A DNA stretch of 64,000 bases. Origin: Shouchella clausii (lineage in GTDB: Bacteria > Bacillota > Bacilli > Bacillales > Bacillaceae_D). This document shows, one piece after another, positions 44,041 through 59,183 of this stretch. The position numbers and the translations under genes are program-made. Positions within the stretch are counted from its first letter, which is position 1. Each line of letters opens with the position of its first letter. The DNA is taken from assembly GCF_001598215.1 (NCBI RefSeq), contig NZ_BCXJ01000001.1:1-64000 (forward strand), written 5' to 3'. The notes below the pieces were generated by a model. It saw nothing but the letters and a program-made list of their open reading frames with translations. It was not told the DNA's origin and made no database searches.

Positions 44041-45270
44041 ATGAATATCATTTGGGGATTAGCGGGATGTAGCTTCATCATTTTATTGTGTTTTCTTTTA
44101 TCTGAAAACAAAAAATCAATTAATATCAAAACTGTTACAATAGGTTTTATTTTGCAAGCACTTTTTGGCTATATAGTTTTAAAATGGCAGTTTGGTAAGA
44201 ATCTTCTTTCAGCTGTATCAGATGGTATTAACGGTATCATTAATTATGGACGTACAGGACTAGAGTTTGTTTTCGGACCGTTAGCTGAGAGCGGTGGAGA
44301 AGTCGGGGTATTTGCGGTTACTGTACTTGGAATGATTATATTCTTAACCATTTTAATCGAGTTACTTTATCATTTTGGAATCATGCAAATAATAGTTCGA
44401 TATATAGGTGGATTTATTACCAAAATTATGGGCGTATCTTACTCGGAGTCGATAACTGCTGCTGCAAATATGTTTGTAGGAAATACTCAGGCACCTTTAA
44501 TCGTAAAACCGTATGTCAAAAACATGACAAGATCACAGTTATTTTCTGTTATGGTTGGTAGTTTAGCCTCTGTATCGGGAGCTGTAATGATTGGTTTAGC
44601 TGCAATGGGTATACCCTTAGATTATCTATTATCGGCTGCGGTAATGTCCGCACCTGCAGGTATTATGATAGCGAAATTTATTATACCAGAAAAAGATGTA
44701 GTAATGGAAGATGAATGGAAGCAAATCTCAGTCGATTCAGAAGAGAAAGAAAAAAAGAGAAACCTTATTGATGTTATCTCTGAAAGTTCGAGAGAAGGGT
44801 TGAGGTTCGCGGTTAACGTAGGTTTAATGCTCATAGCCTTTATAGGATTAATTTCACTCCTTAATGGTTTATTAGGGTGGGGCGGATCCTTAGTTGGATG
44901 GGATAATCTCTCTCTTGAACTGATTCTTGGTTATTTGTTTGCGCCAATTGCTTTTGTTATTGGAATTCCGTGGAGTGAAGCACTCATAGCGGGTAATATG
45001 CTTGCGCAAAAACTTTTACTGAATGAGTTTGTAGCGTTTGCTAACCTTTCTTCAATTCTTGATTCGGTATCTGAAAGAACGATTGCCGTCTTAACTTTCG
45101 CACTAAGTGGTTTTGCTAACTTCGGAGCTGCAGGAGGTATTGTTGCCATGCTGTCCGATATGGTACCACAAAAAAAGGTAATGATTCAAAAACTAATGAT
45201 GAAAGCTTTAATTGCAGCCACATTGGCAAATCTCTTAAATGGAGCAATTGTAACCATATTTATTTTATAG
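44041..45270 (+). CDS. nupC: NupC/CNT-family nucleoside transporter
   Basis: A 409-residue membrane protein of the concentrative nucleoside transporter family: N-terminal helices (FIILLCFLLSE), GVFAVTVLGMIIFLT, a gating region with AAANMFVGNTQAPLIVKPY, and C-terminal VRTI-like ALSGFANFGAAGGIVAMLSDM. It takes up nucleosides by proton or sodium symport. The ATG at 44041 follows AGGGGGGAA; the upstream in-frame ATG has no site. It lies 154 bp after punA, and the gap holds AT-rich DNA with no gene. Confidence 0.9.
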   Translation: MNIIWGLAGCSFIILLCFLLSENKKSINIKTVTIGFILQALFGYIVLKWQFGKNLLSAVSDGINGIINYGRTGLEFVFGPLAESGGEVGVFAVTVLGMIIFLTILIELLYHFGIMQIIVRYIGGFITKIMGVSYSESITAAANMFVGNTQAPLIVKPYVKNMTRSQLFSVMVGSLASVSGAVMIGLAAMGIPLDYLLSAAVMSAPAGIMIAKFIIPEKDVVMEDEWKQISVDSEEKEKKRNLIDVISESSREGLRFAVNVGLMLIAFIGLISLLNGLLGWGGSLVGWDNLSLELILGYLFAPIAFVIGIPWSEALIAGNMLAQKLLLNEFVAFANLSSILDSVSERTIAVLTFALSGFANFGAAGGIVAMLSDMVPQKKVMIQKLMMKALIAATLANLLNGAIVTIFIL

Positions 45271-45393
45271 TTTGAGAATAAGTTATTCTCATATTAGAGA
45301 AGGATGTTTTTATTCAAGCTGTAATCATTGTTTGATGACACATCCTATCTTTTTTGGTAATACGAAAATAATAATGAAAGAAGGTCTGTAATA

Positions 45394-46614
45394 ATGAAAA
45401 CACAACATATTGATAATAAAGGTCCAAAAAAATTACAGAACCTTATTTTAATAATTGGAATCGTATTAGTAGCTTTCAACTTACGACCCGCGATTAATTC
45501 AGTTGGCCCTTTAATTCGTTTAATTAGAGAGGATATTAATATAAGCAACGGAATTGCAGGTCTGTTAACTAGTTTACCGTTGATTGCATTTGCGACTGTT
45601 TCACCTATTGTTCCTAAAATAGCTAGGAAGCTTACTAATGAACGAGCACTGATTATCGGTTTAGTATTAATCATTCTAGGTATTGGAATACGTTCTGTTT
45701 CAATCCTCACTCTATTATTAATAGGGACCCTTATTATTGGTACTGGTATAGCGATATGCAATGTTTTACTACCTAGTATAATTAAAGATAATTTCCCGTT
45801 GAAAATTGCTTTTATGACAGGTCTATACACGACAGCTATGGGAGTATTTGCAGCTGCTGCTTCAGGACTAAGTTTTCCTTTTACAAAGATGTTAAACATC
45901 AATTGGCAGGCTTCCTTGCTCATATGGATGATACCTGCAATCATGGCTGTAGTTATTTGGATATATATCTATAGAAAGACCGATGTAAACAAAGAAAATA
46001 AATCAGAAATACCCGAAAATAATAATCCTGTTAATAATCGGATGTGGCATTCCGCTCTGGCATGGCAAGTTGCTGCACTCTTAGGCTTACAATCATTTTT
46101 ATTTTATGTGACTATCTCTTGGTTGCCGGAAATCCTTCATGATTATGGGGTGAGTTTGGCTACGGCAGGATGGATGCTATCTTTGGCCCAGATTATTGGA
46201 TTACCTGCCAGTTTTCTAGTCCCAATAATTGCCGGGAAACAGAAAACTCAAAGTTTTATCGCTGTATCAATGGGAGTTTCAGCTCTAATTGGTTATTCCG
46301 GACTCTTAGTAGGTAGTTCAATGGCGGTTATGGTTATTAGTATTATCTTAATTGGAATTACATTGAGCGGTGGTTTTGCATTAGCCTTGACTTTATTAGG
46401 ATTACGCGCAAAAACATCCGAGCAGGCTTCAGAACTATCAGGCATGGCCCAGTCTCTAGGGTATTTATTAGCTGCAATAGGTCCATTCGCTATAGGGTTG
46501 TTATTTGATTTAACAAATAGTTGGACTACCCCACTATTTGCTTTAATTTTAATATCTATATTAATAATGTTTTTCGGCTACAAAGCGGGAAGAGACAAGT
46601 ATGTATTAAATTAA
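45394..46614 (+). CDS. MFS transporter, CynX/NimT family
   Basis: A 406-residue twelve-helix transporter. FNLRPAINSVGPLIRLIRED near the start and WLPEILHDYGVSLATAGWMLSL in the second half match the CynX/NimT (YycB-like) family of cyanate or 2-nitroimidazole transporters. In this setting it may move a base or nucleoside; that is inference. Low GC like its neighbours. RBS AGAAGG. Confidence 0.85.
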   Translation: MKTQHIDNKGPKKLQNLILIIGIVLVAFNLRPAINSVGPLIRLIREDINISNGIAGLLTSLPLIAFATVSPIVPKIARKLTNERALIIGLVLIILGIGIRSVSILTLLLIGTLIIGTGIAICNVLLPSIIKDNFPLKIAFMTGLYTTAMGVFAAAASGLSFPFTKMLNINWQASLLIWMIPAIMAVVIWIYIYRKTDVNKENKSEIPENNNPVNNRMWHSALAWQVAALLGLQSFLFYVTISWLPEILHDYGVSLATAGWMLSLAQIIGLPASFLVPIIAGKQKTQSFIAVSMGVSALIGYSGLLVGSSMAVMVISIILIGITLSGGFALALTLLGLRAKTSEQASELSGMAQSLGYLLAAIGPFAIGLLFDLTNSWTTPLFALILISILIMFFGYKAGRDKYVLN

Positions 46615-46739
46615 TTAAAGCGAATCATCTTGAAATGTCCCAAAAAACCAGTGCAGAACTTTGCATTTAGAGAAGCTTACACTTTTCTTTTACACCTTTT
46701 TAAAAATTACTCCATTAACTTACATATAGCTATGTCAAC

Positions 46740-46878
46740 TGGATTCGCATATTCAGCCTTCTTAATTGATAAGAAAAATTATAGTATTATATTGATGTTC
46801 TAGCAGCAATTGCTATAGTAGCTATCGCATGTTTTTAGTTGGTCGTAAAATAAACAAATATACAAATAAAGGAAGATA
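46740..46878 (+). pseudogene. Remnant of a membrane-transporter C-terminus
   Basis: Between the MFS gene and deoB, three frames carry pieces that read as one decayed protein end: TGFAYSAFLIDKKNYSIILMF, then LAAIAIVAIACF, then [11 protein letters not shown]. The hydrophobic stretch followed by a basic tail looks like the last helix of an MFS protein. At least two frameshifts are needed. The remaining part of this 272-bp gap shows nothing else. Confidence 0.35.
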
Positions 46879-46886
46879 TATCCAAT

Positions 46887-48062
46887 ATGCAGTTTAAACG
46901 TATTCATTTAATCGTCATGGACTCAGTGGGAATCGGCGAAGCGAAAGATGCGGCCCAATTTAATGATGTTGGTGCGCATACCCTATTACACATCGCAGAG
47001 CATATGGATGGACTCCATTTGCCTAATCTAGCAAAATTAGGTCTATCTAATATTGAACAAATTAAAGGTGTTCCAAAAGCTGATAAACCATTTGCCTATT
47101 ATACAAAGTTACAAGAAAAGTCTGTTGGGAAAGATACTATGACAGGTCATTGGGAAATCATGGGCTTAAATATTGATAAACCATTTAATGTGTTTCCAAA
47201 TGGGTTCCCTCATAAATTAATTAAACAAATTGAAGAATTAACAGGCCGTAAAGTAGTTGGTAATAAACCAGCGAGTGGCACAGCTATTATTGATGAATAC
47301 GGCGAACACCAAATGAAAACAGGTGATTTGATTGTCTACACATCGTCAGATCCTGTTTTACAAATTGCAGCACATGAAGAAATCATCCCACTAGAGGAAC
47401 TGTATGACATTTGTGAAAAAGTTCGAGAGATTACGAAAGCCCCTGCCTATCTTATTGGTCGAATTATTTCAAGACCTTATATAGGTAAACCTGGGAACTT
47501 TACAAGAACTTCCAATCGACATGATTATGCATTAAAACCATTTAGCAAAACTGTCATGAATAGCCTGCAAGAAGGGGGCTACGATGTTATTGCCATTGGT
47601 AAAATTCATGATATTTTTGATGGTGAAGGTATTACAAAATCGGTCCGTACAAAAGACAACATGGATGGTATGGACAAATTACTCGAGATTATTAAGACAG
47701 ATTTCGCAGGATTGAGCTTCTTAAATTTAGTCGATTTTGATGCCTTATACGGGCATCGCCGTGATCCTGTTGGTTATGGAAAAGCATTAGAGGAGTTTGA
47801 TCAACGTTTAACTGAGGTATTTGATGCAATTTCTGAAGATGATTTATTCATTATTACAGCTGATCACGGGAATGATCCAACATTCCCTGGTACAGATCAT
47901 ACCCGTGAATACATTCCTTTATTAGCCTATTCTAAAAAGTTAACGGGAGCAGGTAAACTACCTGAAAATGATACATTTGCTGATATCGGAGCAACTATTG
48001 CAGATAATTTTAATGTTAGGATGCCAGAACACGGTACTTCTTTTTTAGGTTACTTAAAATAA
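46887..48062 (+). CDS. deoB: Phosphopentomutase
   Basis: A 391-residue alkaline-phosphatase-superfamily enzyme that interconverts ribose-1-phosphate and ribose-5-phosphate (and the deoxy forms). The metal and nucleophile motifs [17 protein letters not shown] (nucleophile Thr) and TADHGNDP...DHTREYIP are complete. It links nucleoside phosphorolysis to the pentose phosphate pathway. RBS AAAGGAAG. Same low GC as the island. A terminator follows. Confidence 0.95.
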
Positions 48063-48068
48063 TATGTG

Positions 48069-48112
48069 AAACATCAGGCAATTCCCAAATACGGCCGGAC
48101 TGCCTGATGTTT
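48069..48112 (+). terminator. Terminator after deoB
   Basis: AAACATCAGGCA (48069-48080) pairs perfectly with TGCCTGATGTTT (48101-48112) around a 20-base loop. Confidence 0.8.
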
Positions 48113-48123
48113 ATATTTACAAC

Positions 48124-48294
48124 CTACCTCTTCCCAAACTTTAATACCTCCAAACAAAGCATGACGAATACGACTGAAGTAAGCACCAAGAAAGAAATAA
48201 CCGCTCCTATCAAACTTTTCTCTATGTACTTTGAAAGAAGATACAAAGTCATACTCCCCACAACAAAATAGATAACATATCGTAGGTATTTCAT
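48124..48294 (-). CDS. Small two-helix membrane protein (hypothetical)
   Basis: A 56-residue ORF with two hydrophobic helices (about 4-20 and 28-50) separated by SKYIEKS and ending LKFGKR. GAGGGG lies about 12 bases upstream of the ATG. Other frames across 48074-48558 on the same strand are longer but lack membrane or domain features and look like shadows. I do not recognise the family. The 544-bp gap holds only this and the next promoter. Confidence 0.4.
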   Translation of the reverse strand: MKYLRYVIYFVVGSMTLYLLSKYIEKSLIGAVISFLVLTSVVFVMLCLEVLKFGKR

Positions 48295-48525
48295 TTAGTT
48301 GTATCAATCCCCTCGTTACTAAGAACCAATCGCGTCTATCGTTTCTAGGAATTTGAAGGCGCCAACACGATCCATTAACTGCTTCCCTCGCTCTCGTGTA
48401 ATTATATAATATCGCCAAACAAACAGGGCCACTTTTTGTACTGTCTTTTTCTTTTTGTAATGCCAAATGATTGCCAAGAAGTAACACTGGCGGACTTTCC
48501 TCCTCCCTCCCCCCAAACTTCCATA

Positions 48526-48590
48526 TTGACAAATCTGTGAACCACTGTTAAGCTCCAAATAGATTCAACTTAGATCTAAGTTAGATTCAT
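48526..48590 (+). promoter_or_regulatory. Promoter and operator of the acid-sugar operon
   Basis: TTGACA (48526-48531) and TAAGCT (48549-48554) are 17 bp apart. Downstream lies a perfect 16-bp palindrome AACTTAGATCTAAGTT (48567-48582), flanked on both sides by AGATTCA (48561-48567 and 48583-48589). It fits a dimeric GntR-type repressor, plausibly the one encoded in this operon. Confidence 0.6.
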
Positions 48591-48605
48591 GGTGGTGAAA
48601 AAAGA

Positions 48606-49943
48606 ATGAATCGGTTGTTGTTAGGCTTTTATGGAGACGATTTCACGGGTTCGACGGATGCAATGGAAGCGCTTGATCAGTATGGGTTAAAGACGATTCT
48701 GTTTTTAAGGATTCCGGATCAAGGAATGCTTAAGCACTTTGAAGATGTAGATTGTATTGGTGTGGCGGGAACGGCGCGAGCCAAGGGGAAAGCGGGGATG
48801 AAGGAGGAGTTAGAGCCTGTTTTTTCTTTCTTACGTGATCTTAATCCTTCCTTTGTCCATTATAAAGTGTGCTCGACGTTTGATTCGTCGCCTGAAACGG
48901 GGAGTATTGGATTTGCCAGTGATTTGGCGAGACGCTATTTTGAAAAAGGCAGCTATCCTTTGCTAGTGGCGGCGCCGAACTTAGGTAGGTATACGGTGTT
49001 TGGGCATCATTTTGCTGCTTTTAACAGTCAAGTTTTCCGATTGGATACACATCCGGTCATGTCTAGGCATCCTGTTACACCAATGGATGAAGCAGACTTA
49101 GCGAAGCATTTGCAGAAGCAAACGAAGCAACGTATTGCAAACGTCACCATTCTTGATTTGGAGGCAAAGTCTGCGTCGGAGATTGTGAATGACGAGTCGG
49201 AAGCGGGCCTTATCGTTTACGATGCCCTGAATCGTGGGCATATGGAAAAGGTTTCTGAAGTGTTATGGGAAAAAAGGGGCGAACGAGCTCAGTTTGTTGT
49301 TGGGTCTTCAGGTGTGGAGTATGCGCTTGGTGAGGCAATGAAGCGAGAAAGGCCGAATGGACGAACAGACAGGGTGAAGAAGCCGAGTAAAGCGGAGCGG
49401 ATTTTTGCCGTTTCTGGAAGCGTATCAGAAGTAACGAAAAACCAATTGCTTGCTGCTGAAGCGGCAGGGTTCCACGCTATTCAAATTCCGGTGGAGCTGT
49501 TTACAGATGAAGCGAAGGCAGAAGCGTTTTTAGCGGACGTTGCAGCGATGATTGCTGCGAAGAAAAAAGTTGTCATCTATACGGCTAAAGGGGCCGATGA
49601 CCCAATTATTATTGAAACAAGGAAGCATCTGAGCGAAAGTGGCGTAGCGAAAGAAGAGGTCGGCATTTTTATCGGTGAAAAGCTCGGTGCGTGGACGAAA
49701 TCGATTTTAGATCGTGTCGATGTTCGACGGGTGATTATTTCCGGTGGGGATACTTCTGGTTTTGTCACATCCAATCTCGACATTTATGGGTTAGAAGTAA
49801 TAGATTCTGTTGCGCCAGGGGCTCCTTTATGTTTAGCATATTCTGAGAGCGAGAAATTTGATGGACTGGAAATCGCCTTAAAAAGCGGTCAGCTTGGCGG
49901 CGAACATTTTTTTGAAAACGTTTATCAATCTGGCTCTAAATAA
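48606..49943 (+). CDS. Four-carbon acid sugar kinase family protein (DUF1537)
   Basis: A 445-residue kinase of the OtnK/DtnK/YgbK family. The N-terminal domain has GDDFTGSTDAMEAL (about 9-22); the C-terminal nucleotide-binding domain has SGSVSEVT (about 277-284) and ISGGDTSGFV (about 379-388). Family members phosphorylate 3-oxo- or 2-oxo-tetronates or D-threonate at O4. The actual substrate is unknown and would probably be an oxidised acid sugar produced by the neighbouring dehydrogenase. RBS GGTGGTG. Confidence 0.88.
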   Translation: MNRLLLGFYGDDFTGSTDAMEALDQYGLKTILFLRIPDQGMLKHFEDVDCIGVAGTARAKGKAGMKEELEPVFSFLRDLNPSFVHYKVCSTFDSSPETGSIGFASDLARRYFEKGSYPLLVAAPNLGRYTVFGHHFAAFNSQVFRLDTHPVMSRHPVTPMDEADLAKHLQKQTKQRIANVTILDLEAKSASEIVNDESEAGLIVYDALNRGHMEKVSEVLWEKRGERAQFVVGSSGVEYALGEAMKRERPNGRTDRVKKPSKAERIFAVSGSVSEVTKNQLLAAEAAGFHAIQIPVELFTDEAKAEAFLADVAAMIAAKKKVVIYTAKGADDPIIIETRKHLSESGVAKEEVGIFIGEKLGAWTKSILDRVDVRRVIISGGDTSGFVTSNLDIYGLEVIDSVAPGAPLCLAYSESEKFDGLEIALKSGQLGGEHFFENVYQSGSK

Positions 49944-49958
49944 ACTAAAGGAATGAAC

Positions 49959-50585
49959 ATGGACATGTTATTGAAAGATGTTGCTTATGAAAAAATTAAA
50001 GAAAAAATTTTAGAAGAGCATTACGAACCTGGCCAGTTTTTATCGGAGCGAACGTTAATCGATGAGCTTGGGATGAGCAAAACGCCCATTAAAAATGCAT
50101 TGGTGCGGCTTGAATCGGAAGGGTTTGTGACCGTTTCTTCCAAGCAAGGCATCATCGTTGTCGATATATCGATCGAACGGATCAATGATATTTACAATTT
50201 GCGGATTGCGTTAGAGACGTTTAATTGCCAGGAAATTTATAAGCGCATAACAGACGATCAAATTAGCGAATTAGAAGAGAATGTCGAAGCAACGAAAGTG
50301 GCTGCGGCTAATAGAGATGTGAAGGCATTTGCCACTTTAGATCATGAGTTTCATTTAGCGATAAGTGAGTTTGCTGGAAACAGTGAGATCACAAAAATTT
50401 TATTAAATTATCAGGATCATTTACGGAGAATTACGCTCCGGCATTTACGGAAAGACCCTGATCGAGTCAAAAAATTCTATACGGAGCATGTCGACATTTT
50501 AGATGCATTGAAAAACAAAAATGACAATTGCTCTGATTTGATGAAAAAACACTTGTACGAATCAAAGATGATGTATTTTCAATGA
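49959..50585 (+). CDS. GntR-family regulator (FCD/FadR subfamily)
   Basis: A 208-residue regulator with an N-terminal winged helix (about 10-75; SERTLIDELGMSKTPIKNALVRLESEGFV in short is the recognition region) and an all-helical FCD ligand domain (about 80-205) whose metal-binding Asp/His positions are present (DHEFHLAI, HVDILDALK). The ATG at 49959 has AAAGGA 6 bases upstream; the earlier ATG abuts it. It lies 15 bp after the kinase and is likely the local repressor, sensing an acid sugar. Confidence 0.88.
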   Translation: MDMLLKDVAYEKIKEKILEEHYEPGQFLSERTLIDELGMSKTPIKNALVRLESEGFVTVSSKQGIIVVDISIERINDIYNLRIALETFNCQEIYKRITDDQISELEENVEATKVAAANRDVKAFATLDHEFHLAISEFAGNSEITKILLNYQDHLRRITLRHLRKDPDRVKKFYTEHVDILDALKNKNDNCSDLMKKHLYESKMMYFQ

Positions 50586-50615
50586 TTGGTTGGTGCAATA
50601 AGGAGAGAAACGACG

Positions 50616-51650
50616 ATGAAAGCTGTTTTTGTAGACGATGCAGAAAAAATTAACATCAAAGAAATCGACATACCGGTAGTGAAGGACAATGACGTGCTAA
50701 TCAAAGTGGCCGCGGCCGGTATTTGTGGGTCGGACATTCATACGTATAAAGGATTGCACCCGTTTCGAAAACCGCCTGTCGTCATTGGTCATGAAGTGGC
50801 TGGCGAAGTTGTGAAAGTTGGCAAAGCGGTAAAAAACGTTCAAGTTGGAGACCGGGTAACGGTTGAACCGCAAATTGGTACGGGAGAGAGCGAAGGCGTG
50901 ATGACAGGCCAGGCGAACTTGTCCGATAAGCGTTTGGCTCCTGGAATGGGCGATTGGCTTGGGACAATGGCTGAATACTTCGTCTCCCCTGAGGCGCAAG
51001 TGATTAAGCTACCGGACACGGTCAGTTATGAAAAAGGGGTGCTAGTTGAGCCGTTGGCGGTTGGCGTCCATGCTGCACGTAAAGGGGATATCCAACCAGG
51101 GGACCGTGTCGCGATTTTAGGTGCTGGGCCGATTGGCTTGTTGACACTTATAGCGGTAAAAGCGAAAGGCGCTTCACACGTTGTTGTGACCGATGTGTTA
51201 GACTACTCTCTTGACGTTGCCAAACAAATGGGGGCAACGGTCGCGATTAATATAAAGGACAAGCCGAATTGGATTGAGGAAGCAAAGAGCAAAGTAGGCC
51301 GATCATTCGATAAAGTGCTGATTACAGCAGGCGTGCCGGGCATCATTAATGATTCATTGAATCTACTAAAAAAAGGGGGACGTGCTGTAACGGTCGCGAT
51401 GTTTCATGGCCAACAAGACTTTGATGTGGAGCAACTACAGCAAAATGAAAAAGAGCTTGTTGGCTGCATGACGTACAATCGTCCCGACACAGAAGAAGCA
51501 TTGGAAATTATCGCAAAAGCTGCCCTTCCAGTCGAAAAAGTAATTTCGCATCAATTGTCTTATGAGCAGGCTGGCAGAGGGTTTGAAATCGTCGATAAAA
51601 AGCTAGATAACTCTGTAAAAGTGATTGTTTCATTTGAACAGGAGGGCTAA
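50616..51650 (+). CDS. Zinc-type medium-chain dehydrogenase
   Basis: A 344-residue MDR enzyme related to sorbitol, threonine and L-idonate dehydrogenases. Catalytic zinc ligands Cys37 (GICGSDIH), His59 and Glu60 (IGHEVAGEV) and a later Glu (VEPLAVG) are present; the NAD motif GAGPIGLL is at about 170-177. The structural-zinc lobe, usually four cysteines, reads EPQIGTGESEGVMTGQ with none, so that site is lost. RBS AAGGAGAG. Expected to oxidise a secondary hydroxyl of the imported acid sugar; the substrate is not known. Confidence 0.9.
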   Translation: MKAVFVDDAEKINIKEIDIPVVKDNDVLIKVAAAGICGSDIHTYKGLHPFRKPPVVIGHEVAGEVVKVGKAVKNVQVGDRVTVEPQIGTGESEGVMTGQANLSDKRLAPGMGDWLGTMAEYFVSPEAQVIKLPDTVSYEKGVLVEPLAVGVHAARKGDIQPGDRVAILGAGPIGLLTLIAVKAKGASHVVVTDVLDYSLDVAKQMGATVAINIKDKPNWIEEAKSKVGRSFDKVLITAGVPGIINDSLNLLKKGGRAVTVAMFHGQQDFDVEQLQQNEKELVGCMTYNRPDTEEALEIIAKAALPVEKVISHQLSYEQAGRGFEIVDKKLDNSVKVIVSFEQEG

Positions 51651-51653
51651 AGG

Positions 51654-52643
51654 ATGACAAAAAAACAGTGGTTATGGCCTGTTGCAGCAATCGCCCTTGT
51701 CTTAACTGGCTGCAACGTTGGATATGCAGATGAAGGCGAGCCGAAAAAGCTACGCCTTGGCCATATTCAAAGTGAGTCGAATGCGTGGCATAAAGGCTCA
51801 CTCAAATTTGCCGAATTGGTGCATGAAAAAACAGGCGGTTCTGTCAAGGTAGAGGTTTATCCAAGCTCTACTCTTGGCGCCGACCGCGACCTGGTTGAAG
51901 GCATGCAAATTGGCTCAGTTGATTTTGCTTTAGTAGCTGGTGTTATGTCGAACTTTTATGAACCATACTCGATCTTAGAGCTCCCTTATCTATTCGAAGA
52001 TTTGGACCATTTAGAGGAATTTGTCTATGGAGAAGATGGTAAGCGATTGCAAGAGGAGACATTAGAAGCTACAGGAGTAAGAGGGCTGGAGTTTTGGCTC
52101 CGTGGGGCAAGGCAACTTACAACCAATAAGCTTGTTGAGTCACCTGAAGACCTCCGTGGCATAAAAATTCGTGTGCCAAACATTGAGGCGTCTGTAGAAG
52201 GCTGGCAGGCAATGGGGGCAAGCCCAACACCGATGAACTTTGGCGAAGTGTATTCCTCTTTACAGACAGGCGTGATTGACGCACAAGAAAATCCAATTGA
52301 GTTCACCGCAAGTGCGAGAATCCATGAAGTCCAAGACTATCTTGTGATGACGGACCACGTTTTTGGTTATGTGCAATTATTAATGAGTGACAAAACGTAC
52401 CAAGAGTTAACAAAGGACGAACAGCAAGCTGTCATGGAAGCGGCTGAAGAAGCTCGTATGTACCAAAATGAAATCGTTTCCGCAGAAGAAGAGAGCGCTT
52501 TGCAAATGATGCTCGATGAAGGCGTCGAGCAAATCGAAGTCGATCAGGAGCCGTTTCGTGAGTCTGTTCAACGTGTCAATGAGAGATTAGCTGATCAATA
52601 TGGGAGAGAACTTTACGACACGATTCAAGGGATGAGGGAGTAA
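51654..52643 (+). CDS. dctP: TRAP transporter solute-binding protein DctP
   Basis: A 329-residue binding lipoprotein. The signal ends in LTGC (Cys20), so it is lipid-anchored outside the membrane. The family core with carboxylate-binding Arg is seen in LRGARQLTTNK and the signature IRVPNIEASVEGWQAMG...GEVYSSLQTGVIDAQENP is complete. It belongs to the TIGR00787 (DctP) group. The ligand is likely an organic acid, probably a sugar acid given the operon. It starts 3 bp after the dehydrogenase. Confidence 0.92.
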   Translation: MTKKQWLWPVAAIALVLTGCNVGYADEGEPKKLRLGHIQSESNAWHKGSLKFAELVHEKTGGSVKVEVYPSSTLGADRDLVEGMQIGSVDFALVAGVMSNFYEPYSILELPYLFEDLDHLEEFVYGEDGKRLQEETLEATGVRGLEFWLRGARQLTTNKLVESPEDLRGIKIRVPNIEASVEGWQAMGASPTPMNFGEVYSSLQTGVIDAQENPIEFTASARIHEVQDYLVMTDHVFGYVQLLMSDKTYQELTKDEQQAVMEAAEEARMYQNEIVSAEEESALQMMLDEGVEQIEVDQEPFRESVQRVNERLADQYGRELYDTIQGMRE

Positions 52644-52648
52644 GGCGG

Positions 52649-53155
52649 ATGAATACGTACATTCGAATCATTGATGGTATTAATAATGGAGTTAAGTCGA
52701 TTGTATCTGTGATGTTGGCGCTCTTAGCGGTGCTCGTCGTTTTACAAGTAACAACACGGTTTGTCATTAATGTTCCACTAGCATGGACAGAAGAAATTGC
52801 TCGTTATCTAATGATTTATATTGTATTCCTAGGGTCAGGGTTAGCGACACGTCATAATCAGCATATTGCGATTGATTTTTTAGTAGAGGTCATCAACCAC
52901 AAAAACAAAGCGAGGTTGCAAACGGTTATTTTAGTGATTAGTGCTGTATTTTTCCTCATTTTAGCCTATTGTGGAGCACAGTTAACGTTCATGGTTATTG
53001 GTCAGTCGACCCCTACATTGCAATATTCAATGGCGTGGGCATATGCAGCGATCCCTCTTGGCGCCGTATTAATGCTATTAAATACTGTTGCCTTGCTTTT
53101 GAAGACGAAAAAAGTTGCAGGCAGCATAGACAGAATAGTTGGTGAGAGCAAATGA
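52649..53155 (+). CDS. dctQ: TRAP transporter small permease DctQ
   Basis: A 168-residue membrane protein with four helices. The motif VPLAWTEEIARYLMIYIVFLG is the DctQ hallmark. It pairs with DctM and overlaps its start by 4 bases. Confidence 0.92.
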   Translation: MNTYIRIIDGINNGVKSIVSVMLALLAVLVVLQVTTRFVINVPLAWTEEIARYLMIYIVFLGSGLATRHNQHIAIDFLVEVINHKNKARLQTVILVISAVFFLILAYCGAQLTFMVIGQSTPTLQYSMAWAYAAIPLGAVLMLLNTVALLLKTKKVAGSIDRIVGESK

Positions 53156-54426
53156 TCATTGTATTGCTTATATCGTTACTCGTTCTCTTCTTTATCGGTG
53201 TGCCGGTAGCCATTTCACTTGGCTTATCGACAAGTATTGCGATCATTGTAGCAGGCGATATTCCACTATTAACGCTTGCACAGCGAGCGTTTGTGTCCCT
53301 TGACTCGTTTCCTTTACTGGCGATTCCGTTATTTGTTTTAGCTGGTGTTATGATGGAATATGGCGGAATTTCACAACGGCTCATTAACCTGGCCAATGCG
53401 ATTACTGGCCATTTAACAGGAGGACTCGCTGTTGTGACGGTTGTGACGACGATGTTTTTTGCCGCTATATCAGGATCAAGTGTGGCCGCGACGGCTGCTT
53501 TAGGTGCGATTTTAGTACCGGCAATGATTAGCAGAGGGTATGAAAAAGAATTTTCAGGAGGCGTGCAAGCTGTATCAGGAACACTTGGCATTATTATACC
53601 GCCGAGCATCCCGTTGATTTTGTATGGAACAGCAGTCGGAGCATCGATTGGCGATTTGTTTATTGCCGGGATGGTACCTGGGATCATTATTGGGATTGGC
53701 CTGATTACGACTGTTTATATTATTGCCAAAAAACGGAATTATTCAAAAGAAGAAAAGAAAAGCGGGAAAGAGATTGGCGGGGCTTTTGTAAAAGCCGTGC
53801 CAGCCTTAATTATGCCCGTTATTATTCTAGGCGGAATCTACTCAGGTGTGTTTACAGCAACAGAGGCCGCTGGTGTAGCTGTCGCTTATGCAATCATTGT
53901 TGGTGTGTTTGTTTATAAAACCATTACGTTCGCGAAAATTAGAACCATTTTGTCTCAAGCATCGGTAACGACAGCTACAATCATGCTTATTTTAGCGGCA
54001 GCAGGCTTGTTTAGTTGGATTTTAACAATTGAGAACGTACCGCAGCAAGTGGCCAGCGTCATTACGTCCATTTCCGAAAATCCGTTGGTATTTCTTAGTA
54101 TTGTTGTTCTATTACTCCTCCTCGTAGGGATGTTTATGGAAACAAACGCATCGATTATTATTTTGGCACCGATTCTTGTACCCGTCGCATCGGAATTAGG
54201 GATTGACCCTGTTCACTTCGGCATCGTCATGATTGTCACACTTGCAGTTGGCATGGTCACGCCGCCACTTGGGTTAAATCTCTTTGTTGTATCGAAAATT
54301 GCCAACTTAAGAATGGATCGATTAACAGTAAGCCTTATCCCATTTTACATCGCTATATTGATCTGCTTATTCATTGTCACATTTATTCCTTCTCTCACAA
54401 TGACGGTTGTAGAGTGGATGAAATGA
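53152..54426 (+). CDS. dctM: TRAP transporter large permease DctM
   Basis: A 424-residue transporter subunit of about 12 helices that uses a sodium gradient in relatives. GSSVAATAALGAILVPAM, IPPSIPLILYG and VTPPLGLNLFV are DctM signatures. With DctP and DctQ it makes a complete tripartite importer. Use of sodium would suit an alkaliphile. Confidence 0.94.
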   Translation: MIIVLLISLLVLFFIGVPVAISLGLSTSIAIIVAGDIPLLTLAQRAFVSLDSFPLLAIPLFVLAGVMMEYGGISQRLINLANAITGHLTGGLAVVTVVTTMFFAAISGSSVAATAALGAILVPAMISRGYEKEFSGGVQAVSGTLGIIIPPSIPLILYGTAVGASIGDLFIAGMVPGIIIGIGLITTVYIIAKKRNYSKEEKKSGKEIGGAFVKAVPALIMPVIILGGIYSGVFTATEAAGVAVAYAIIVGVFVYKTITFAKIRTILSQASVTTATIMLILAAAGLFSWILTIENVPQQVASVITSISENPLVFLSIVVLLLLLVGMFMETNASIIILAPILVPVASELGIDPVHFGIVMIVTLAVGMVTPPLGLNLFVVSKIANLRMDRLTVSLIPFYIAILICLFIVTFIPSLTMTVVEWMK

Positions 54427-54451
54427 TCAAAGCGAAAAAGGAGCGTTAGAT

Positions 54452-55108
54452 ATGGAAAACCATTCGATTTTGCAAGACTTGCAAAAGACAGGAACGTTTA
54501 TGATGGAGAAAGACCTCGCTTGGGGAACGGCAGGGAACATTAGTGCAAGATGTGAAGAAGGCTATTTGATCTCCGCTACTGGCACGTACTTGGGCGAATT
54601 AGAAGCAGAGGATTTTGCATATTGCCAAGGAGGAGAGCACCTTGCTGGCAAAAAGCCTTCAAAAGAATATGTAATGCATGAAGGCATTTACGAACAGAGG
54701 CCAGAAATCGGGGCTGTGCTCCATTCATCCCCGTTTTACAGCACATTGATCGCCAATACCGACCTTCGTTTGCCAGCGAACTACTTTGTCGAGTCGATGT
54801 ATTATCTGGAGAGAATCGTGCGTATTCCTTACTATCAGCCAGGCAGTAAAGAGCTAGCCCAAGCCGTTAAGGAGAAAGCAAAAGAGGCAAACGTCTTTCT
54901 GTTAGAGAATCACGGCATTATCGTTTGCGATGTGAATTTGAAAGAAGCACGCACCGCATTGCAAACGCTTGAATACACAGCGCGCATGCATATAACAGCA
55001 TTAGAGAAAGGCATAATCATCAACGGTTTAAGTGACGATACAGTCCATCAGTTTCTTCATCACTCCGGCTATAAACCGGTGAGACAGTGGGGAGAAACCA
55101 AACAATAA
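54452..55108 (+). CDS. Class II aldolase-like protein with altered metal site
   Basis: A 218-residue member of the class II aldolase/adducin (AraD/FucA) family. Phosphate-binding GTAGNISAR (about 25-33) and SATG (41-44), the catalytic-Glu region PSKEYVMHEGIY and the third zinc histidine in ENHGIIV are present. The usual HxH pair of zinc ligands reads H91-S-S93, so one histidine is missing. A related enzyme (OtnC/YgbL) cleaves or decarboxylates 3-oxo-tetronate phosphate. Activity here may use another metal geometry or be lost. Last gene of the operon; RBS AAAGGAG. Confidence 0.82.
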   Translation: MENHSILQDLQKTGTFMMEKDLAWGTAGNISARCEEGYLISATGTYLGELEAEDFAYCQGGEHLAGKKPSKEYVMHEGIYEQRPEIGAVLHSSPFYSTLIANTDLRLPANYFVESMYYLERIVRIPYYQPGSKELAQAVKEKAKEANVFLLENHGIIVCDVNLKEARTALQTLEYTARMHITALEKGIIINGLSDDTVHQFLHHSGYKPVRQWGETKQ

Positions 55109-55113
55109 ATGTT

Positions 55114-55143
55114 AAACAGGTTGCATGAAGCAGCCTGTTTTTT
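55114..55143. terminator. Terminator after the acid-sugar operon
   Basis: AAACAGGTTGC pairs with GCAGCCTGTTT (one G-U), followed by TTT. It may also end the minus-strand gene on the right. Confidence 0.75.
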
Positions 55144-55203
55144 GATGTTTTAGCGTATAGAATAAAAAGAAATTATTAAAACCCTCGCAACCTACCCCTC
55201 CAA

Positions 55204-55656
55204 TTACCATAGCGTTATTTGCCAAAACTCCCTATCTGCTAACACAAGGTCATAAGGTGTTTCTATATCGGTCCAGTCAACAGTTTTCGTTCTCGAAATA
55301 GGCTTATCCTCTTGCCCGTTCACACTAGTAAAATACTCGATTATACGGCTCGTATGGATAGCCGCTTCTAAATAATCGTACAAGATCGTTAAGCATTTTT
55401 CTTCGACTGGCTTATTTGTGCATTCTCCTTTTAGTGGAATGGCATTATCATACGCAGCTACTTGATGCTTAAACGAAAAGTGTTGGGAATAGGTAAAGCG
55501 CTTTTTCCGTTCATTATCGTAATTTCTTTCAAAAAACAGATGAGTAAAATCGAGTTCATCTTTAAATATGTGGGGCTTATCCTTTGAAATAGGTTTTTGG
55601 CCGTAACCACCTTGTGGCAATTTCAGCGGAGAAGCGATGTATATGTATTGAGTCAT
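55204..55656 (-). CDS. Hypothetical protein
   Basis: A 150-residue soluble protein (from MTQYIYIASPLKLPQGGYG) with no signal, membrane segment or motif that I recognise. The ATG at 55656 has AAGGAGAT upstream; an ATG 7 codons earlier lacks one. The many Tyr/Phe and charged residues and the even composition suggest a real gene. It stands alone between two terminators. Function unknown. Confidence 0.6.
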   Translation of the reverse strand: MTQYIYIASPLKLPQGGYGQKPISKDKPHIFKDELDFTHLFFERNYDNERKKRFTYSQHFSFKHQVAAYDNAIPLKGECTNKPVEEKCLTILYDYLEAAIHTSRIIEYFTSVNGQEDKPISRTKTVDWTDIETPYDLVLADREFWQITLW

Positions 55657-55872
55657 AAAGATCTCCTTGTTAGCCATTTTTTAATTTAGTAGATTTGATA
55701 ACCGCTATCTGATGAAATTCTTAAAAAGTTGCTGCAACGGTTATGGATCTACGTTAATCTAATAGTAAGTCATTTCAACATTGGCTGTTCGCCAACGTCA
55801 TTCCGGGGATCTGGAAGTGGCTTTTTTCTTTTATATTAGTATACAGACTTACTCGTGAAAGTAGGGTGTGCG

Positions 55873-56676
55873 GTGCTCATTTCGATCATTCTTTATTCAT
55901 TAATCGGGATTTTGATTGGCATACTTTCAAGTTTATTTGGCTTTGGGGGAGGGTTTGTAGTTGTCCCTGTATTGGTTGCATTCTTGCCTGACTCCATTCC
56001 ACCAGATTATTTGATGCATACGGCTGTGGGCACTTCTCTTGCTGTAATGATCATTAACTCGCTCAATTCCACGTTCAACCACGCGAAAAAAGGCAATGTG
56101 AAGTGGTTTGTTTTTAGAGGGCTGGTTTTCTATATTGCCATCGGTTCTTTAATAGGAGGAGTTAGTGCCGTTTATATCAATAGCGATTTTCTAAGGTTTG
56201 CCTTTATCGGTTTATTGTTGTACGTCATTGTAAGCAATCTATTTAAAAAAACATTTACTGCCCATGTGGAAGACCAAGATTTTCGGATGCCAAGTCGGAA
56301 ATCAAGGGGACCAGTAGGTGTTGTCATCGGGTTGATATCAACGATGTTGGGTGTTGGCGGCAGTGTCATGACGATTCCTTATTTAAGAAAGCAAGGGATG
56401 CGGATGTTGAATGCGGTTGCCCTTGCTACACCGCTAGGCTTGCCGATTGCGATTGTGGGGGCCTTCACTTTTTTAATCACAGGTTTGCAAATAGAGGGGA
56501 TGCCTGGCTCCACGCTTGGCTTTATCTTTATTCCGGCTTTGTGTGGATTTACAATCGGTGGGTTTATTGGCGTACCGTTGGGGCGGTCGTGGGCGCAAAA
56601 GATCCCCGATGCTGTCTATTCCAAAGTGTACTTAATCTTACTGATCATTGTCGTCATCATGATGATGTTAGAATAG
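55873..56676 (+). CDS. TauE/SafE-family membrane permease (TSUP)
   Basis: A roughly 267-residue membrane protein with about eight helices. GILSSLFGFGGGFVVVPVL (first half) and ISTMLGVGGSVMTIPYL (second half) form the repeated TSUP signature, and GFIGVPLGRSWAQKIP the C-terminal one. The family exports or imports sulfite, sulfonates or other organosulfur anions; the substrate here is unknown. The GTG at 55873 lies after TAGGGTG; an alternative GTG is at 55855. Single gene with terminator. Confidence 0.85.
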   Translation: MLISIILYSLIGILIGILSSLFGFGGGFVVVPVLVAFLPDSIPPDYLMHTAVGTSLAVMIINSLNSTFNHAKKGNVKWFVFRGLVFYIAIGSLIGGVSAVYINSDFLRFAFIGLLLYVIVSNLFKKTFTAHVEDQDFRMPSRKSRGPVGVVIGLISTMLGVGGSVMTIPYLRKQGMRMLNAVALATPLGLPIAIVGAFTFLITGLQIEGMPGSTLGFIFIPALCGFTIGGFIGVPLGRSWAQKIPDAVYSKVYLILLIIVVIMMMLE

Positions 56677-56686
56677 CGTAAACGTG

Positions 56687-56725
56687 CCGCCTTTAAGAAA
56701 GGATATACTCTTAAAGGCGGTTTGT
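56687..56725 (+). terminator. Terminator after the TSUP gene
   Basis: CCGCCTTTAAGA (56687-56698) pairs with TCTTAAAGGCGG (56709-56720), then TTTG. Confidence 0.78.
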
Positions 56726-56808
56726 CTGTATATAAAGCACGGTAGGGGTTAAAGGGAGAGACCATACATATGACTGTTTGGCGTGAGTGCGGTATCATTT
56801 ATCAGCGC

Positions 56809-56994
56809 TTAAATAACAAAAGCAATAATCACAACGACGATAACAGAAATCGGCACAATTAAAAAATAGAGCCACGTAAAGGTCTTTAAGCTTTTTTCGC
56901 TGCTGTATGAAGCATCGGTGGATTTCATAGCGAATAACGATACAATTAAACCAATTAAACAAATCAATCCAATAATGATATAGAGCGCAATCAT
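56809..56994 (-). CDS. Small two-helix membrane protein (hypothetical)
   Basis: A 61-residue protein with two strong hydrophobic helices (about 2-23 and 41-60) joined by a polar loop KSTDASYSSEKSLK. AGGGGGA precedes the ATG at good distance. No family is recognised. Transcribed toward the TSUP gene. Confidence 0.6.
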   Translation of the reverse strand: MIALYIIIGLICLIGLIVSLFAMKSTDASYSSEKSLKTFTWLYFLIVPISVIVVVIIAFVI

Positions 56995-57449
56995 GCTGAT
57001 CCCCCTAGTCGGTCATTTCAGTAAACGTTCTATAGTGGCTAACGATTTTACCGTACCATATTAGAGTGCCGTTTGGAATAAATCCGCTGTTTTTGTTCAT
57101 GTAGAATTGTTCAAAATACCCTCTTATTTAGCCACTTAGGGGTTTTACCAAGCGGTCCTCCTTAAAGGATCATCACGCCATTCTCTAAAATCCCTATCTC
57201 CTACGTTGTTAAGGAAATAGTCCTATCCTCTTCTCTATCGACATAAACATGGTTTTAAGGGGGATTCCTATCTCCATTTTACAAGTTAATCGTTCGTGTT
57301 TGCAGGCGAGAATATTTAATTGAATTTTCTTTTTATTCATAGGGAGTGATAGAAAATGGGTATACTTATAAAATTGGGTTGACTTATAGGAATTATATGT
57401 TTTAATAAGACTTAGTTTACGTTGAAAAATTCGTGAAGGAGGAGTTCGA
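56995..57449. other. Gene-free stretch with promoter of the ABC operon
   Basis: No convincing gene in 455 bp. The minus strand has broken frames with many stops and a repeated GGAGATAGG, perhaps a decayed gene of unknown kind. On the plus strand TTGACT (57379-57384) and TAATAA (57403-57408), 18 bp apart, are a likely promoter for the downstream ABC operon. Confidence 0.4.
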
Positions 57450-59183
57450 TTGGTTTTAAGACAAAAATGGCTCTACCCTGGTTTTCTTACAGTGGCATTG
57501 TTAGGCGCTTGCAATACGGAGATGGGCGCAGATGATTCAACCCGTTCTTTAGAGGAGAACGACGAAAACCAAGAGGAATCAACGGTTGTAGAAGATGTAA
57601 AGGTAAAAGCGGCTGATCCATCCTCCTCACCTGCATTAGCAAGCAATCGAGGGAATACGGTTGTTGTCGGTTTACAGGAGCCAGGAGGCATCTTTACGCC
57701 GCATTTTAATACAAGTGGCTATGATGGAAATGTGCAAGCTGTCATGTTCCCTCCCCTTGTTGACATAAACGAAAAGGGGGAGCCATTCGGGAGGCTTGCA
57801 GAGGATTGGGACATCTCGGAAGATGAATTAACCTATACATATTATTTACGGGATGACCTAAAATTTGATGACGGCTCGCCTCTTACTGCAAATGATGTGG
57901 CTTTTACGGTAACGCTTTTGTTTGATCCTGATTATCCAGGAACGACGGATTTGACAGAAACCAACTTGGTTGGCGGCCTTGAATATAAGGAAGGCGATGC
58001 TGACAGCATTGCCGGCATTCATGTAATTGACGATCAAACGATTGAATTTCAGCTAGAAGAACCAAATGCGCGAGCGTTGACTATGCTTGGCGGCACTGTG
58101 CTTAGTGAAAAATATTATGGAGAGAAATACGAAAAAGGCGACTTGGATTATATGAGTGACTATCATTTAAAACCACTTGGGGCAGGTCCGTTTAAATTTG
58201 AGGCGTACCATCCTGGAGAAGAGATTCGGTTCTCGGCCAATGAGCATTATTATAACGGCAAACCAGACGTCGATACATTTGTGTACCGAACGACTGAAGG
58301 GGACTCGCAACAATTTTTCCAAACTGGGGAATTGGATTACAGCGGTTTTGTCGCTACGAAAGATAATTTTGAACTGTTGGAGTCAATGGAGTTTGCCAAT
58401 ATTGATCTGTATACTTCGTCGAATTACAGTTATATCGCCTTTAACCATGAGTCCGAGGTGTTTAAAGATCCGAATGTTCGGATTGCTTTTAATTTGGGGC
58501 TAGATCGGCAAGCGTACATTGACGCTCGGTTTCAAGGATACGCACAGCTAGCCAATGTCCCAGTGTCGCCTATTTCTTGGGCCTATACAGACGAAGTAGA
58601 GGCGTTTCCATATGATCCTGAAGAAGCGAAGCGGCTTCTAGACGAGGCGGGATGGAAGGAAGGACCTGACGGCATAAGAGAAAAAGACGGGCAGAAGTTA
58701 ACGGTCTATTTCTTTACAACGGATGGCAGCGGCAGCAATGACATTTTCGTGACGCTTGCGCAAGAAAACTATAAAGACATTGGCGTCGATTTTCAAATTG
58801 AACAAATGGATTTTAATGCGTTGCTGGCGCGTGTTGACAACGGCGATCATGATCTCGTGTCTTTCTCGACAACGATGCAGCCAGATCCACATATCGGCGT
58901 GCAAGCATTTCATTCAAGCCATACTGGCAATACATTTAGAGGGTACAAAAATGAGGAAATTGATCGTTTAATTGAAGCTTCCGTAGCTGTAAGTGATCTT
59001 GATGCTAGGGCGGAAGCCTACCATGAGCTTTATGAAAAGTTAAAAGAAGATCCCCCTATCATTCTGCTCAATTACAACAAATCCCTTGCGGCAACCAATG
59101 CACGTGTAGAAGGGTTTGAACCGAATGGGTTTCGAGGCATTAGCTTGAGTTTAGAAAACTTGCGGGTGGTAGACACACCTTAA
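57450..59183 (+). CDS. ABC transporter substrate-binding lipoprotein (family 5)
   Basis: A 577-residue extracellular binding protein of the OppA/DppA/NikA family. The signal ends LLGAC (Cys about 21), so it is a lipoprotein. An acidic linker (about 28-50) precedes the binding domain, which starts near VVVGLQEPGGIFTPHFN. The SBP_bac_5 fold is recognisable in DDLKFDDGSPLTANDVAFTVTLL in parts. TTG start after AAGGAGGAG. The ligand is probably a peptide; nickel or another ligand is possible. Confidence 0.92.
   Translation: MVLRQKWLYPGFLTVALLGACNTEMGADDSTRSLEENDENQEESTVVEDVKVKAADPSSSPALASNRGNTVVVGLQEPGGIFTPHFNTSGYDGNVQAVMFPPLVDINEKGEPFGRLAEDWDISEDELTYTYYLRDDLKFDDGSPLTANDVAFTVTLLFDPDYPGTTDLTETNLVGGLEYKEGDADSIAGIHVIDDQTIEFQLEEPNARALTMLGGTVLSEKYYGEKYEKGDLDYMSDYHLKPLGAGPFKFEAYHPGEEIRFSANEHYYNGKPDVDTFVYRTTEGDSQQFFQTGELDYSGFVATKDNFELLESMEFANIDLYTSSNYSYIAFNHESEVFKDPNVRIAFNLGLDRQAYIDARFQGYAQLANVPVSPISWAYTDEVEAFPYDPEEAKRLLDEAGWKEGPDGIREKDGQKLTVYFFTTDGSGSNDIFVTLAQENYKDIGVDFQIEQMDFNALLARVDNGDHDLVSFSTTMQPDPHIGVQAFHSSHTGNTFRGYKNEEIDRLIEASVAVSDLDARAEAYHELYEKLKEDPPIILLNYNKSLAATNARVEGFEPNGFRGISLSLENLRVVDTP

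What the first reader, a model, noticed from the sequence alone, without database searches (positions are those of the whole stretch)
48606..55108. Candidate undescribed acid-sugar catabolic operon
The order kinase (DUF1537)-GntR-zinc dehydrogenase-TRAP importer-class II aldolase is coherent: import, oxidation, phosphorylation, cleavage. Known tetronate pathways use a hydroxyisobutyrate-type dehydrogenase and often an isomerase or epimerase; here there is a medium-chain zinc dehydrogenase and none of the latter. This suggests a different substrate, or direct oxidation at C3 or C4.
Basis: partly seen in the sequence, partly recalled or inferred. Interest (0 to 1): 0.65.

Follow-up and report, generated by a model that had tools for sequence, protein, structure and literature searches.

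The report
Sugar-acid catabolic operon, direct-oxidation variant
This is a real, self-contained bacterial gene set that probably imports a short sugar acid and breaks it down by a shortcut that starts with a zinc alcohol dehydrogenase; its closest relatives carry a RuBisCO-like enzyme that this version lacks.

Summary
In detail: seven intact co-directional genes at 48606-55108 in a Shouchella genome, with a conserved palindromic operator in front and a terminator-like hairpin behind. The cassette occurs in 11 of 41 genomes of the family (one copy broken), in another family of the order and, with an extra gene, in Paenibacillus and relatives.

The kinase scores best with the 3-oxo-isoapionate (OiaK) model, not the tetronate models, and below every cut-off. 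In 34 of 36 related loci it lies with a RuBisCO-like protein (RLP, OiaX branch). Paenibacillus-type copies of this operon keep the RLP behind the same operator motif; the Shouchella clade lacks it. The aldolase clade has Ser or Thr at a zinc His of FucA/OtnC (19 of 19 aligned) and lies beside a DUF1537 kinase in 14 of 14 places in 398 Bacilli genomes.

Best reading: TRAP import, direct C3 oxidation, phosphorylation, decarboxylation to a DHAP-type product. Substrate open: a C4 tetronate (favoured) or a branched isoapionate-type acid. A Gly/Ser kinase rule I formed failed in 5 of 5 RLP-less haloarchaeal kinases. No activity was tested. New variant of a known kind.

The parts
48526..48531 (+). 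TTGACA, likely -35 element
   Evidence: Read from the sequence; conserved in the 8 upstream regions aligned. The promoter scanner did not list it, since the -10 candidate TAAGCT at 48549-48554 is poor.
48567..48582 (.). Likely operator, perfect palindrome AACTTAGATCTAAGTT
   Evidence: only exact copy in the genome. TAGATCTA copies also precede the first gene (RLP) of the six Paenibacillus-type operons. With 2 mismatches allowed the genome has 3 places against 8 for the reversed control pattern, so no wider regulon is shown.
48606..49943 (+). DUF1537 sugar-acid kinase, OiaK branch, Ser427 in motif LKSGQ
   Evidence: SBD_N and NBD_C; OiaK 425.5 bits against cut-off 700, OtnK 190.2 against 350, DtnK 97.6 against 450.
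49953..50585 (+). GntR/FCD transcriptional regulator, likely repressor of the operon
   Evidence: GntR and FCD domains; travels with the operator motif. Repression is inference.
50616..51650 (+). Zinc medium-chain dehydrogenase, likely C3 oxidase of the sugar acid
   Evidence: ADH_N, ADH_zinc_N; best NCBIfam L-threonine 3-dehydrogenase 202.8 bits against cut-off 380; C37, H59, E60, E145 and D193 invariant in 27 aligned rows, 22 of them distinct.
51654..52643 (+). TRAP solute-binding protein DctP (lipoprotein)
   Evidence: nearest solved chain 4pc9/4pcd, 234 bits, next 168.7.
52649..53155 (+). TRAP small permease DctQ
   Evidence: Pfam DctQ.
53152..54426 (+). TRAP large permease DctM
   Evidence: Pfam DctM, NCBIfam dctM over cut-off.
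54452..55108 (+). Class II aldolase homologue with altered metal site (H91, S93, H154, E72), likely decarboxylase or aldolase of the phosphorylated keto acid
   Evidence: Aldolase_II; OtnC 130.8 bits against cut-off 250; FucA alignment; 19-member alignment.
55114..55140 (+). Terminator-like hairpin followed by T-rich tail

Best explanation
A single regulated transcription unit for the uptake and degradation of a short sugar acid. The TRAP transporter (DctPQM) imports the acid. The zinc MDR dehydrogenase oxidises the C3 hydroxyl directly to a 3-oxo acid, so neither a C2 dehydrogenase nor the OtnI isomerase is needed. The DUF1537 kinase phosphorylates the terminal hydroxyl next to the new ketone. 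The class II aldolase homologue then cleaves the bond between the carboxyl-bearing carbon and the rest, most simply as an OtnC-like decarboxylase, giving CO2 and dihydroxyacetone phosphate if the acid is a C4 tetronate (favoured, about 0.45 of the total for the substrate). GntR represses from the palindrome until the acid is present. SHOWN: gene content, order, conservation, operator and terminator-like sites, family membership, intact catalytic zinc ligands of the MDR, altered metal site of the aldolase, absence of a close RLP from the genome. INFERRED: substrate, position of oxidation, order of steps, products, repression.
For: Seven-gene order in 11 of 41 family genomes and beyond. The aldolase clade lies beside a DUF1537 kinase in 14 of 14 places found in 398 Bacilli genomes, and beside the MDR in 11 of 14. 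In other loci the same aldolase clade and a kinase are paired with a different dehydrogenase: LtnD-like in L103, isocitrate/isopropylmalate type in L104, L110 and, by its sequence start, L120, which fits one slot, 'make the keto acid', filled by unrelated enzymes. The KARI_N/PGDH_C protein (c32, by recall the D-apionate oxidoisomerase type) and the MDR never share a locus in the sets. The MDR resembles L-threonine 3-dehydrogenase, a C3 oxidase, more than other curated models. Kinase Ser427 is Ser also in the solved 3dqq, 1yzy and 5dmh kinases and in an annotated OtnK (L123), while 48 of 48 readable RLP-associated kinases have Gly. No OtnI hit in the genome. The RLP is dispensable: absent from L108/G176 and from G000, G007 and G212 as whole genomes.
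Against: The kinase is OiaK-like, not OtnK-like, by score, and its relatives partner with an RLP, which points to branched acids. Five of 5 RLP-less haloarchaeal kinases have Gly at the 427 column, so the Ser/Gly signal is not a general marker of RLP absence. The aldolase lacks a zinc ligand that OtnC and FucA keep, so its chemistry may differ from OtnC. The nearest solved DctP (4pc9/4pcd) was, by recall, crystallised with six-carbon aldonates. A three-step route with C2 oxidation is known for L-threonate (PMC12540250), so the MDR could act at C2. No activity was tested.
Confidence: 0.5

Rival explanations
1. Branched-acid route: the imported acid is isoapionate-like (2-C-hydroxymethyl tetronate). 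The MDR oxidises it straight to 3-oxo-isoapionate, the OiaK-like kinase makes the 4-phosphate, and the aldolase homologue has taken over the decarboxylation done by the RLP in relatives, giving L-erythrulose 1-phosphate, or it cleaves that further.
For: Kinase model OiaK 425.5 bits. RLP of the OiaX branch in the same operon in L037, L038, L099-L102 and L081, behind the same operator motif in the first six. RLPs that decarboxylate or hydrolyse 3-oxo-isoapionate-4-phosphate are in print (PMC6302742 passage). Haloarchaea with a Gly427 kinase have either an RLP or a class II aldolase beside it: aldolase in L121, L125, L126, L127, RLP in L128, L129, L131, L132, neither in L130.
Against: Window kinase has Ser, not Gly, at 427. 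RLP and aldolase coexist in many operons (8 of 14 places), so simple replacement does not explain both. Importer and dehydrogenase of the RLP-less clade have mostly drifted further from the outgroup than those of the RLP-bearing clade, as a change of substrate would give; the MDR against G038 does not show it.
Confidence: 0.25
2. Linear C5 or C6 aldonate route: the MDR oxidises a hydroxyl of a longer aldonate, as L-idonate or L-galactonate 5-dehydrogenases do; the kinase phosphorylates the far end; the aldolase splits the product by a true retro-aldol step.
For: DctP nearest to 4pc9/4pcd, whose ligands by recall are D-mannonate and L-galactonate; aldolase also scores with FucA-type models, 108 bits; MDR scores with L-idonate 5-dehydrogenase, 160 bits.
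Against: DUF1537 kinases with known activity act on C4 acids or isoapionate (recalled; C4 part also). DctP similarity does not fix the ligand. Aldolase scores better with OtnC than with FucA.
Confidence: 0.13
3. Three-step C2 route: the MDR oxidises C2 of L-threonate or erythronate, the kinase acts on the 2-oxo acid and the aldolase homologue is a 2-OtnC.
For: Such a bypass of OtnI with 2-OtnK and 2-OtnC is described in PMC12540250 (passage). No OtnI found.
Against: Family resemblance of the MDR to a C3 oxidase and of the kinase to enzymes of 3-oxo acids.
Confidence: 0.09
4. Remnant of an apiose-type operon that lost its RLP and no longer works.
For: RLP missing; one relative (G037, L079/L014) has a broken copy.
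Against: All seven frames intact in the window and in nine other Shouchella-type copies, with 59-99 percent kinase identity and conserved catalytic residues and operator.
Confidence: 0.03

Closest known systems
L-threonate / D-erythronate pathway with LtnD or DenD, OtnI, OtnK, OtnC (Zhang et al. 2016, not held, recalled; pathway passage in PMC12540250; E. coli ygbJKLMN shown)
   Same: Acid import, dehydrogenase, DUF1537 kinase, class II aldolase homologue; no RLP; kinase Ser at column 427.
   Different: MDR instead of the hydroxyisobutyrate-type dehydrogenase; no OtnI; kinase in the OiaK branch; aldolase metal site HxS instead of HxH; scores below the OtnK and OtnC cut-offs.
D-apiose / 3-oxo-isoapionate pathway with OiaK and OiaX (Carter et al. 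2018, not held; passage about it in PMC6302742)
   Same: Kinase of the OiaK branch; relatives of the operon carry an OiaX-branch RLP.
   Different: No RLP, no lactonase and no c32-type oxidoisomerase in the window operon; TRAP rather than sugar ABC import; kinase 425 bits against the OiaK cut-off of 700.
D-threonate pathway with DtnK and PdxA2
   Same: DUF1537 kinase for a C4 acid; two such pairs are in the same genome (L071, L072).
   Different: No PdxA in the window operon; kinase 98 bits against the DtnK cut-off of 450.

Membership tests
OtnK/OtnC tetronate pathway | Kinase over the 3-oxo-tetronate kinase cut-off (350 bits) | tested here: not met
   190.2 bits.
OtnK/OtnC tetronate pathway | Decarboxylase over the OtnC cut-off (250 bits) | tested here: not met
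   130.8 bits.
OtnK/OtnC tetronate pathway | HxH zinc motif of the class II aldolase fold, as in YgbL | tested here: not met
   Window HSS; YgbL HLH.
OtnK/OtnC tetronate pathway | Hydroxyisobutyrate-type dehydrogenase and OtnI in the operon | tested here: not met
   Neither among the seven genes; no YgbM hit in the genome (no positive control).
OtnK/OtnC tetronate pathway | Activity on 3-oxo-tetronate and its 4-phosphate | not testable with these tools
   Needs enzymes.
OiaK/OiaX isoapionate pathway | Kinase over the OiaK cut-off (700 bits) | tested here: not met
   425.5 bits, the best of the three kinase models.
OiaK/OiaX isoapionate pathway | RuBisCO-like partner in the genome | tested here: not met
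   Only a 29 percent identical, distant homologue in the genome.
OiaK/OiaX isoapionate pathway | Common ancestry with RLP-partnered kinases | tested here: met
   Kinase tree groups the window clade with six RLP-bearing operons, support 97/91; deeper forks are unresolved and the outgroups are long.
OiaK/OiaX isoapionate pathway | Activity on 3-oxo-isoapionate | not testable with these tools
   Needs enzymes.
DUF1537 (four-carbon acid sugar kinase) family | SBD_N and NBD_C domains over cut-off | tested here: met
   177.5 and 117.8 bits.
Zinc MDR dehydrogenases | ADH_N and ADH_zinc_N domains with catalytic zinc ligands | tested here: met
   Domains; C37, H59, E60, E145 invariant.
L-threonine 3-dehydrogenase | Over the Tdh cut-off (380 bits) | tested here: not met
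   202.8 bits.

The most novel reading that the evidence does not exclude
The aldolase homologue is the founder of a new class II aldolase subfamily whose metal site has been rebuilt (zinc His to Ser, with a new conserved Glu114) for decarboxylating or cleaving phosphorylated 3-oxo acids. It works beside a RuBisCO-like enzyme in Paenibacillus-type operons and alone in Shouchella, where the RuBisCO-like step was dropped, leaving a minimal direct-C3-oxidation pathway from a sugar acid to a glycolytic intermediate.
Probability: 0.3. Interest if true: 0.65.

Novelty: new variant of a known kind. Interest (0 to 1): 0.47.

Why it matters
If right, it adds a shorter entry into the DUF1537 acid-sugar pathways: one zinc dehydrogenase does what a dehydrogenase plus an isomerase (or an oxidoisomerase) do elsewhere. 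The matched pair of operons, with and without the RuBisCO-like protein but with the same importer, regulator, dehydrogenase and aldolase, makes the job of an uncharacterised RuBisCO-like branch directly testable. The aldolase clade offers a natural change of a zinc ligand to study.

Tried and rejected
Simple rule that kinase Gly427 means RLP and Ser427 means no RLP: formed, tested on new loci. It held for 48 of 48 readable RLP-bearing rows (two rows, L080 and L042, are the same genome) and for 12 of 12 RLP-less Bacilli rows, but failed for 5 of 5 RLP-less haloarchaeal rows (L121, L125, L126, L127, L130), all Gly. L135 and L140, with no RLP in the stretch fetched but a c32 gene, are Gly too. 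Not readable or not aligned: L049 and L136 (bad ORF), L141 (no full kinase ORF); L070 and L079 were dropped before the alignment, and L040, L041, L044, L050, L065 and L069 gave no kinase ORF to it.

Faster kinase change after RLP loss: rejected. Against the f22 outgroup the kinase differs little (43.1 against 44.8 percent identity), while MDR (55.9 against 64.9), DctP (57.7 against 67.3, outgroup G038) and DctM (58.0 against 65.6, G038) differ more; the MDR against G038 shows no difference (49.6 against 48.6).

AlphaFold models of the aldolase and of DctP failed (mean pLDDT 41.7 and 43.7, four-row alignments), so no structural claim about the metal site rests on them. A fold comparison with the poor DctP model listed TRAP binding proteins with Z up to 9.6, 4pcd at Z 7.9; titles were cut off before the ligand, so it settled nothing. 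Searches for papers naming the ligand entries gave nothing relevant. Zhang 2016, Vetting 2015 and Carter 2018 are not held. No Rfam family reached its gathering score in 45000-57500. No wider regulon: looser operator matches were no more common than the control. A rpiB-type search (PF02502, three copies) did not bear on the question. The exact operator core was not found directly upstream of the kinase in L081. An early ORF count marked L051, L062 and L066 as RLP-less in the tree labels; tblastn showed the RLP in all three, and likewise the aldolase in L100. G105 was added to by mistake; it is not one of the cassette genomes.
Full report
WHAT IS THERE. The window comes from a Shouchella genome: its kinase is 99 percent identical to that of S. 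tritolerans FJAT-45399. Seven intact genes on the plus strand span 48606-55108: DUF1537 kinase, GntR/FCD regulator, zinc MDR dehydrogenase, DctP, DctQ, DctM, class II aldolase homologue (families). In front lie a TTGACA at 48526-48531 and a perfect palindrome AACTTAGATCTAAGTT at 48567-48582. In an alignment of eight upstream regions the TTGACA and the AGATCTAAG core are invariant. Behind the last gene is an 11-pair terminator-like hairpin at 55114-55140; the promoter scanner did not list the TTGACA site, and terminator-like sites in the region were no more numerous than in shuffles. No Rfam family reached its threshold in 45000-57500.

CONSERVATION. A kinase search of 41 genomes of the family, read with the neighbourhoods, gives the cassette in 11 of 41: G000, G039, G029, G035, G040, G033, G030, G034, G037 (broken by stops), G038 and G007 (another genus). 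G212, of another family in the order, has it as well. Two Paenibacillus loci (L037, L038) and four loci in unnamed Bacilli (L099-L102) have the same order preceded by an RLP gene. G038 (L081) has the RLP after the aldolase.

THE KINASE BELONGS TO THE OIAK BRANCH. NCBIfam gives OiaK 425.5 bits (cut-off 700), 3-oxo-tetronate kinase 190.2 (350) and D-threonate kinase 97.6 (450), so none is met. Of 36 loci found with the kinase in genome contigs, 34 carry an RLP in the stretch; the two without are the Shouchella loci L035 and L036. The RLPs scanned score 399-472 bits with OiaX (cut-off 700). [quoted passage not shown] In the kinase tree (51 rows) the RLP-less Shouchella-type clade (100/100) is sister to the six RLP-bearing Paenibacillus-type operons (97/91). 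Deeper forks are open and the outgroups are long. I infer loss of the RLP, by parsimony. No RLP of more than 33 percent identity to that of L037 is in the whole genomes G000, G039, G029, G035, G040, G033, G030, G034, G037, G007, G212 or G176, while G038, G281 and G210 have one of 57-68 percent. The distant homologue in G000 was not typed further.

THE RLP IS PART OF THE SAME UNIT WHERE PRESENT. TAGATCTA copies, mostly in tandem, lie just upstream of the RLP in 6 of 6 Paenibacillus-type operons and upstream of the kinase in the Shouchella-type ones. In L081 no exact copy lies directly upstream of the kinase.

THE ALDOLASE CLADE. A search of 398 Bacilli genomes at E <= 1e-25 found 14 places in 12 genomes. 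All 14 lie beside a DUF1537 kinase, 11 beside the MDR and 8 with an RLP. L108 (G176) is a second RLP-less MDR-kinase-aldolase set, with an MFS-sized gene where L105 has its MFS transporter. Partners differ elsewhere: L103 has an LtnD-like dehydrogenase and an OiaK-like kinase; L104 and L110 have an isocitrate/isopropylmalate-type dehydrogenase and a DtnK-like kinase. The alignment with FucA puts window H91, S93, H154 and E72 at the FucA positions that by recall are H92, H94, H155 and E73. Among 19 clade members aligned, position 93 is Ser in 18 and Thr in L081, never His; E. coli YgbL has His there. Niallia L120 also has Ser; the haloarchaeal aldolase of L121 has HTH. E114 is nearly invariant in the clade. 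Model OtnC scores 130.8 bits (cut-off 250), FucA-type 108.3.

THE DEHYDROGENASE. Best curated model L-threonine 3-dehydrogenase, 202.8 bits against cut-off 380; best solved relatives are ketose reductase, xylitol and sorbitol dehydrogenases. C37, H59, E60 and E145 (catalytic zinc) and D193 (by recall a mark of NAD preference) are invariant in 27 rows, 22 distinct. The ten Shouchella-type rows have lost the cysteine-rich loop that the other rows keep. The MDR and the c32 protein (PGDH_C with KARI_N similarity; by recall of the D-apionate oxidoisomerase kind) do not occur together in any locus.

SUBSTRATE. Signals for a tetronate: aldolase nearest OtnC; kinase Ser427, shared with 3dqq, 1yzy and 5dmh and an annotated OtnK (L123), against Gly in 48 of 48 readable RLP-associated kinases; RLP absent; no OtnI hit (no positive control); importer and, against one of two outgroups, dehydrogenase of the RLP-less clade more diverged. 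Signals for a branched acid: the OiaK branch and the RLP partnership of relatives. Against my Ser/Gly marker: 5 of 5 RLP-less haloarchaeal kinases are Gly, four of them beside a class II aldolase. Signal for C6 acids: nearest solved DctP 4pc9/4pcd, ligands recalled only. I give about 0.45 to a C4 tetronate, 0.3 to a branched acid and 0.25 to others.

KNOWN OR NEW. The pairing of DUF1537 kinases with class II aldolases for threonate and erythronate is known (Zhang et al. 2016, recalled; pathway passages in PMC12540250, which also describe a three-step route without OtnI). PMC7325909 (passages) cites the same work for RLPs in four-carbon acid degradation. I saw no description of the MDR variant in the searches, which cover only the open-licence part of the literature; of the papers listed there I read passages of four (PMC12540250, PMC11770544, PMC6302742, PMC7325909) and only the listings of the rest. 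I therefore file it as a new variant of a known kind. The same genome has three other DUF1537 kinases, two beside a PdxA homologue, which fits several non-redundant acid-sugar systems in one organism.

LIMITS. No activity, ligand or expression was measured. Both structure predictions failed.

Noticed in passing
L071, L072, L073 (G000:C3): Three further DUF1537 kinases in the same genome: two beside a PdxA homologue (D-threonate type) and one beside a 2-hydroxy-3-oxopropionate reductase-type dehydrogenase.
   Followed up: partly
window 50616-51650 and orthologues: Shouchella-type MDR proteins have lost the cysteine-rich (structural zinc) loop that the Paenibacillus-type and f22 relatives keep, while the catalytic zinc ligands remain.
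   Followed up: partly
L121, L125, L126, L127 (haloarchaeal plasmids): OiaK-branch kinases beside a class II aldolase and without an RLP; the aldolase of L121 has the ordinary HxH motif. Others (L128, L129, L131, L132) have an RLP instead.
   Followed up: partly
L104, L110, L120: The same aldolase clade beside isocitrate/isopropylmalate-type dehydrogenases, a DtnK-like kinase and an Asp/Glu-racemase-like protein, possibly another acid-sugar pathway (the L120 dehydrogenases judged by sequence start only).
   Followed up: no
L105:16014-17300: A LarA-like (lactate racemase N-terminal domain) protein follows the aldolase-MDR-RLP-MFS-kinase set, a possible C2 epimerase of the substrate.
   Followed up: no
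L079/L014 (G037:C42): A copy of the operon broken by stops in kinase, MDR and transporter genes, in a draft genome of 86 percent completeness.
   Followed up: no
L123 (Cupriavidus pinatubonensis plasmid p2): An OtnK-OtnC pair and an RLP-OiaK-branch pair with TRAP genes lie side by side.
   Followed up: no
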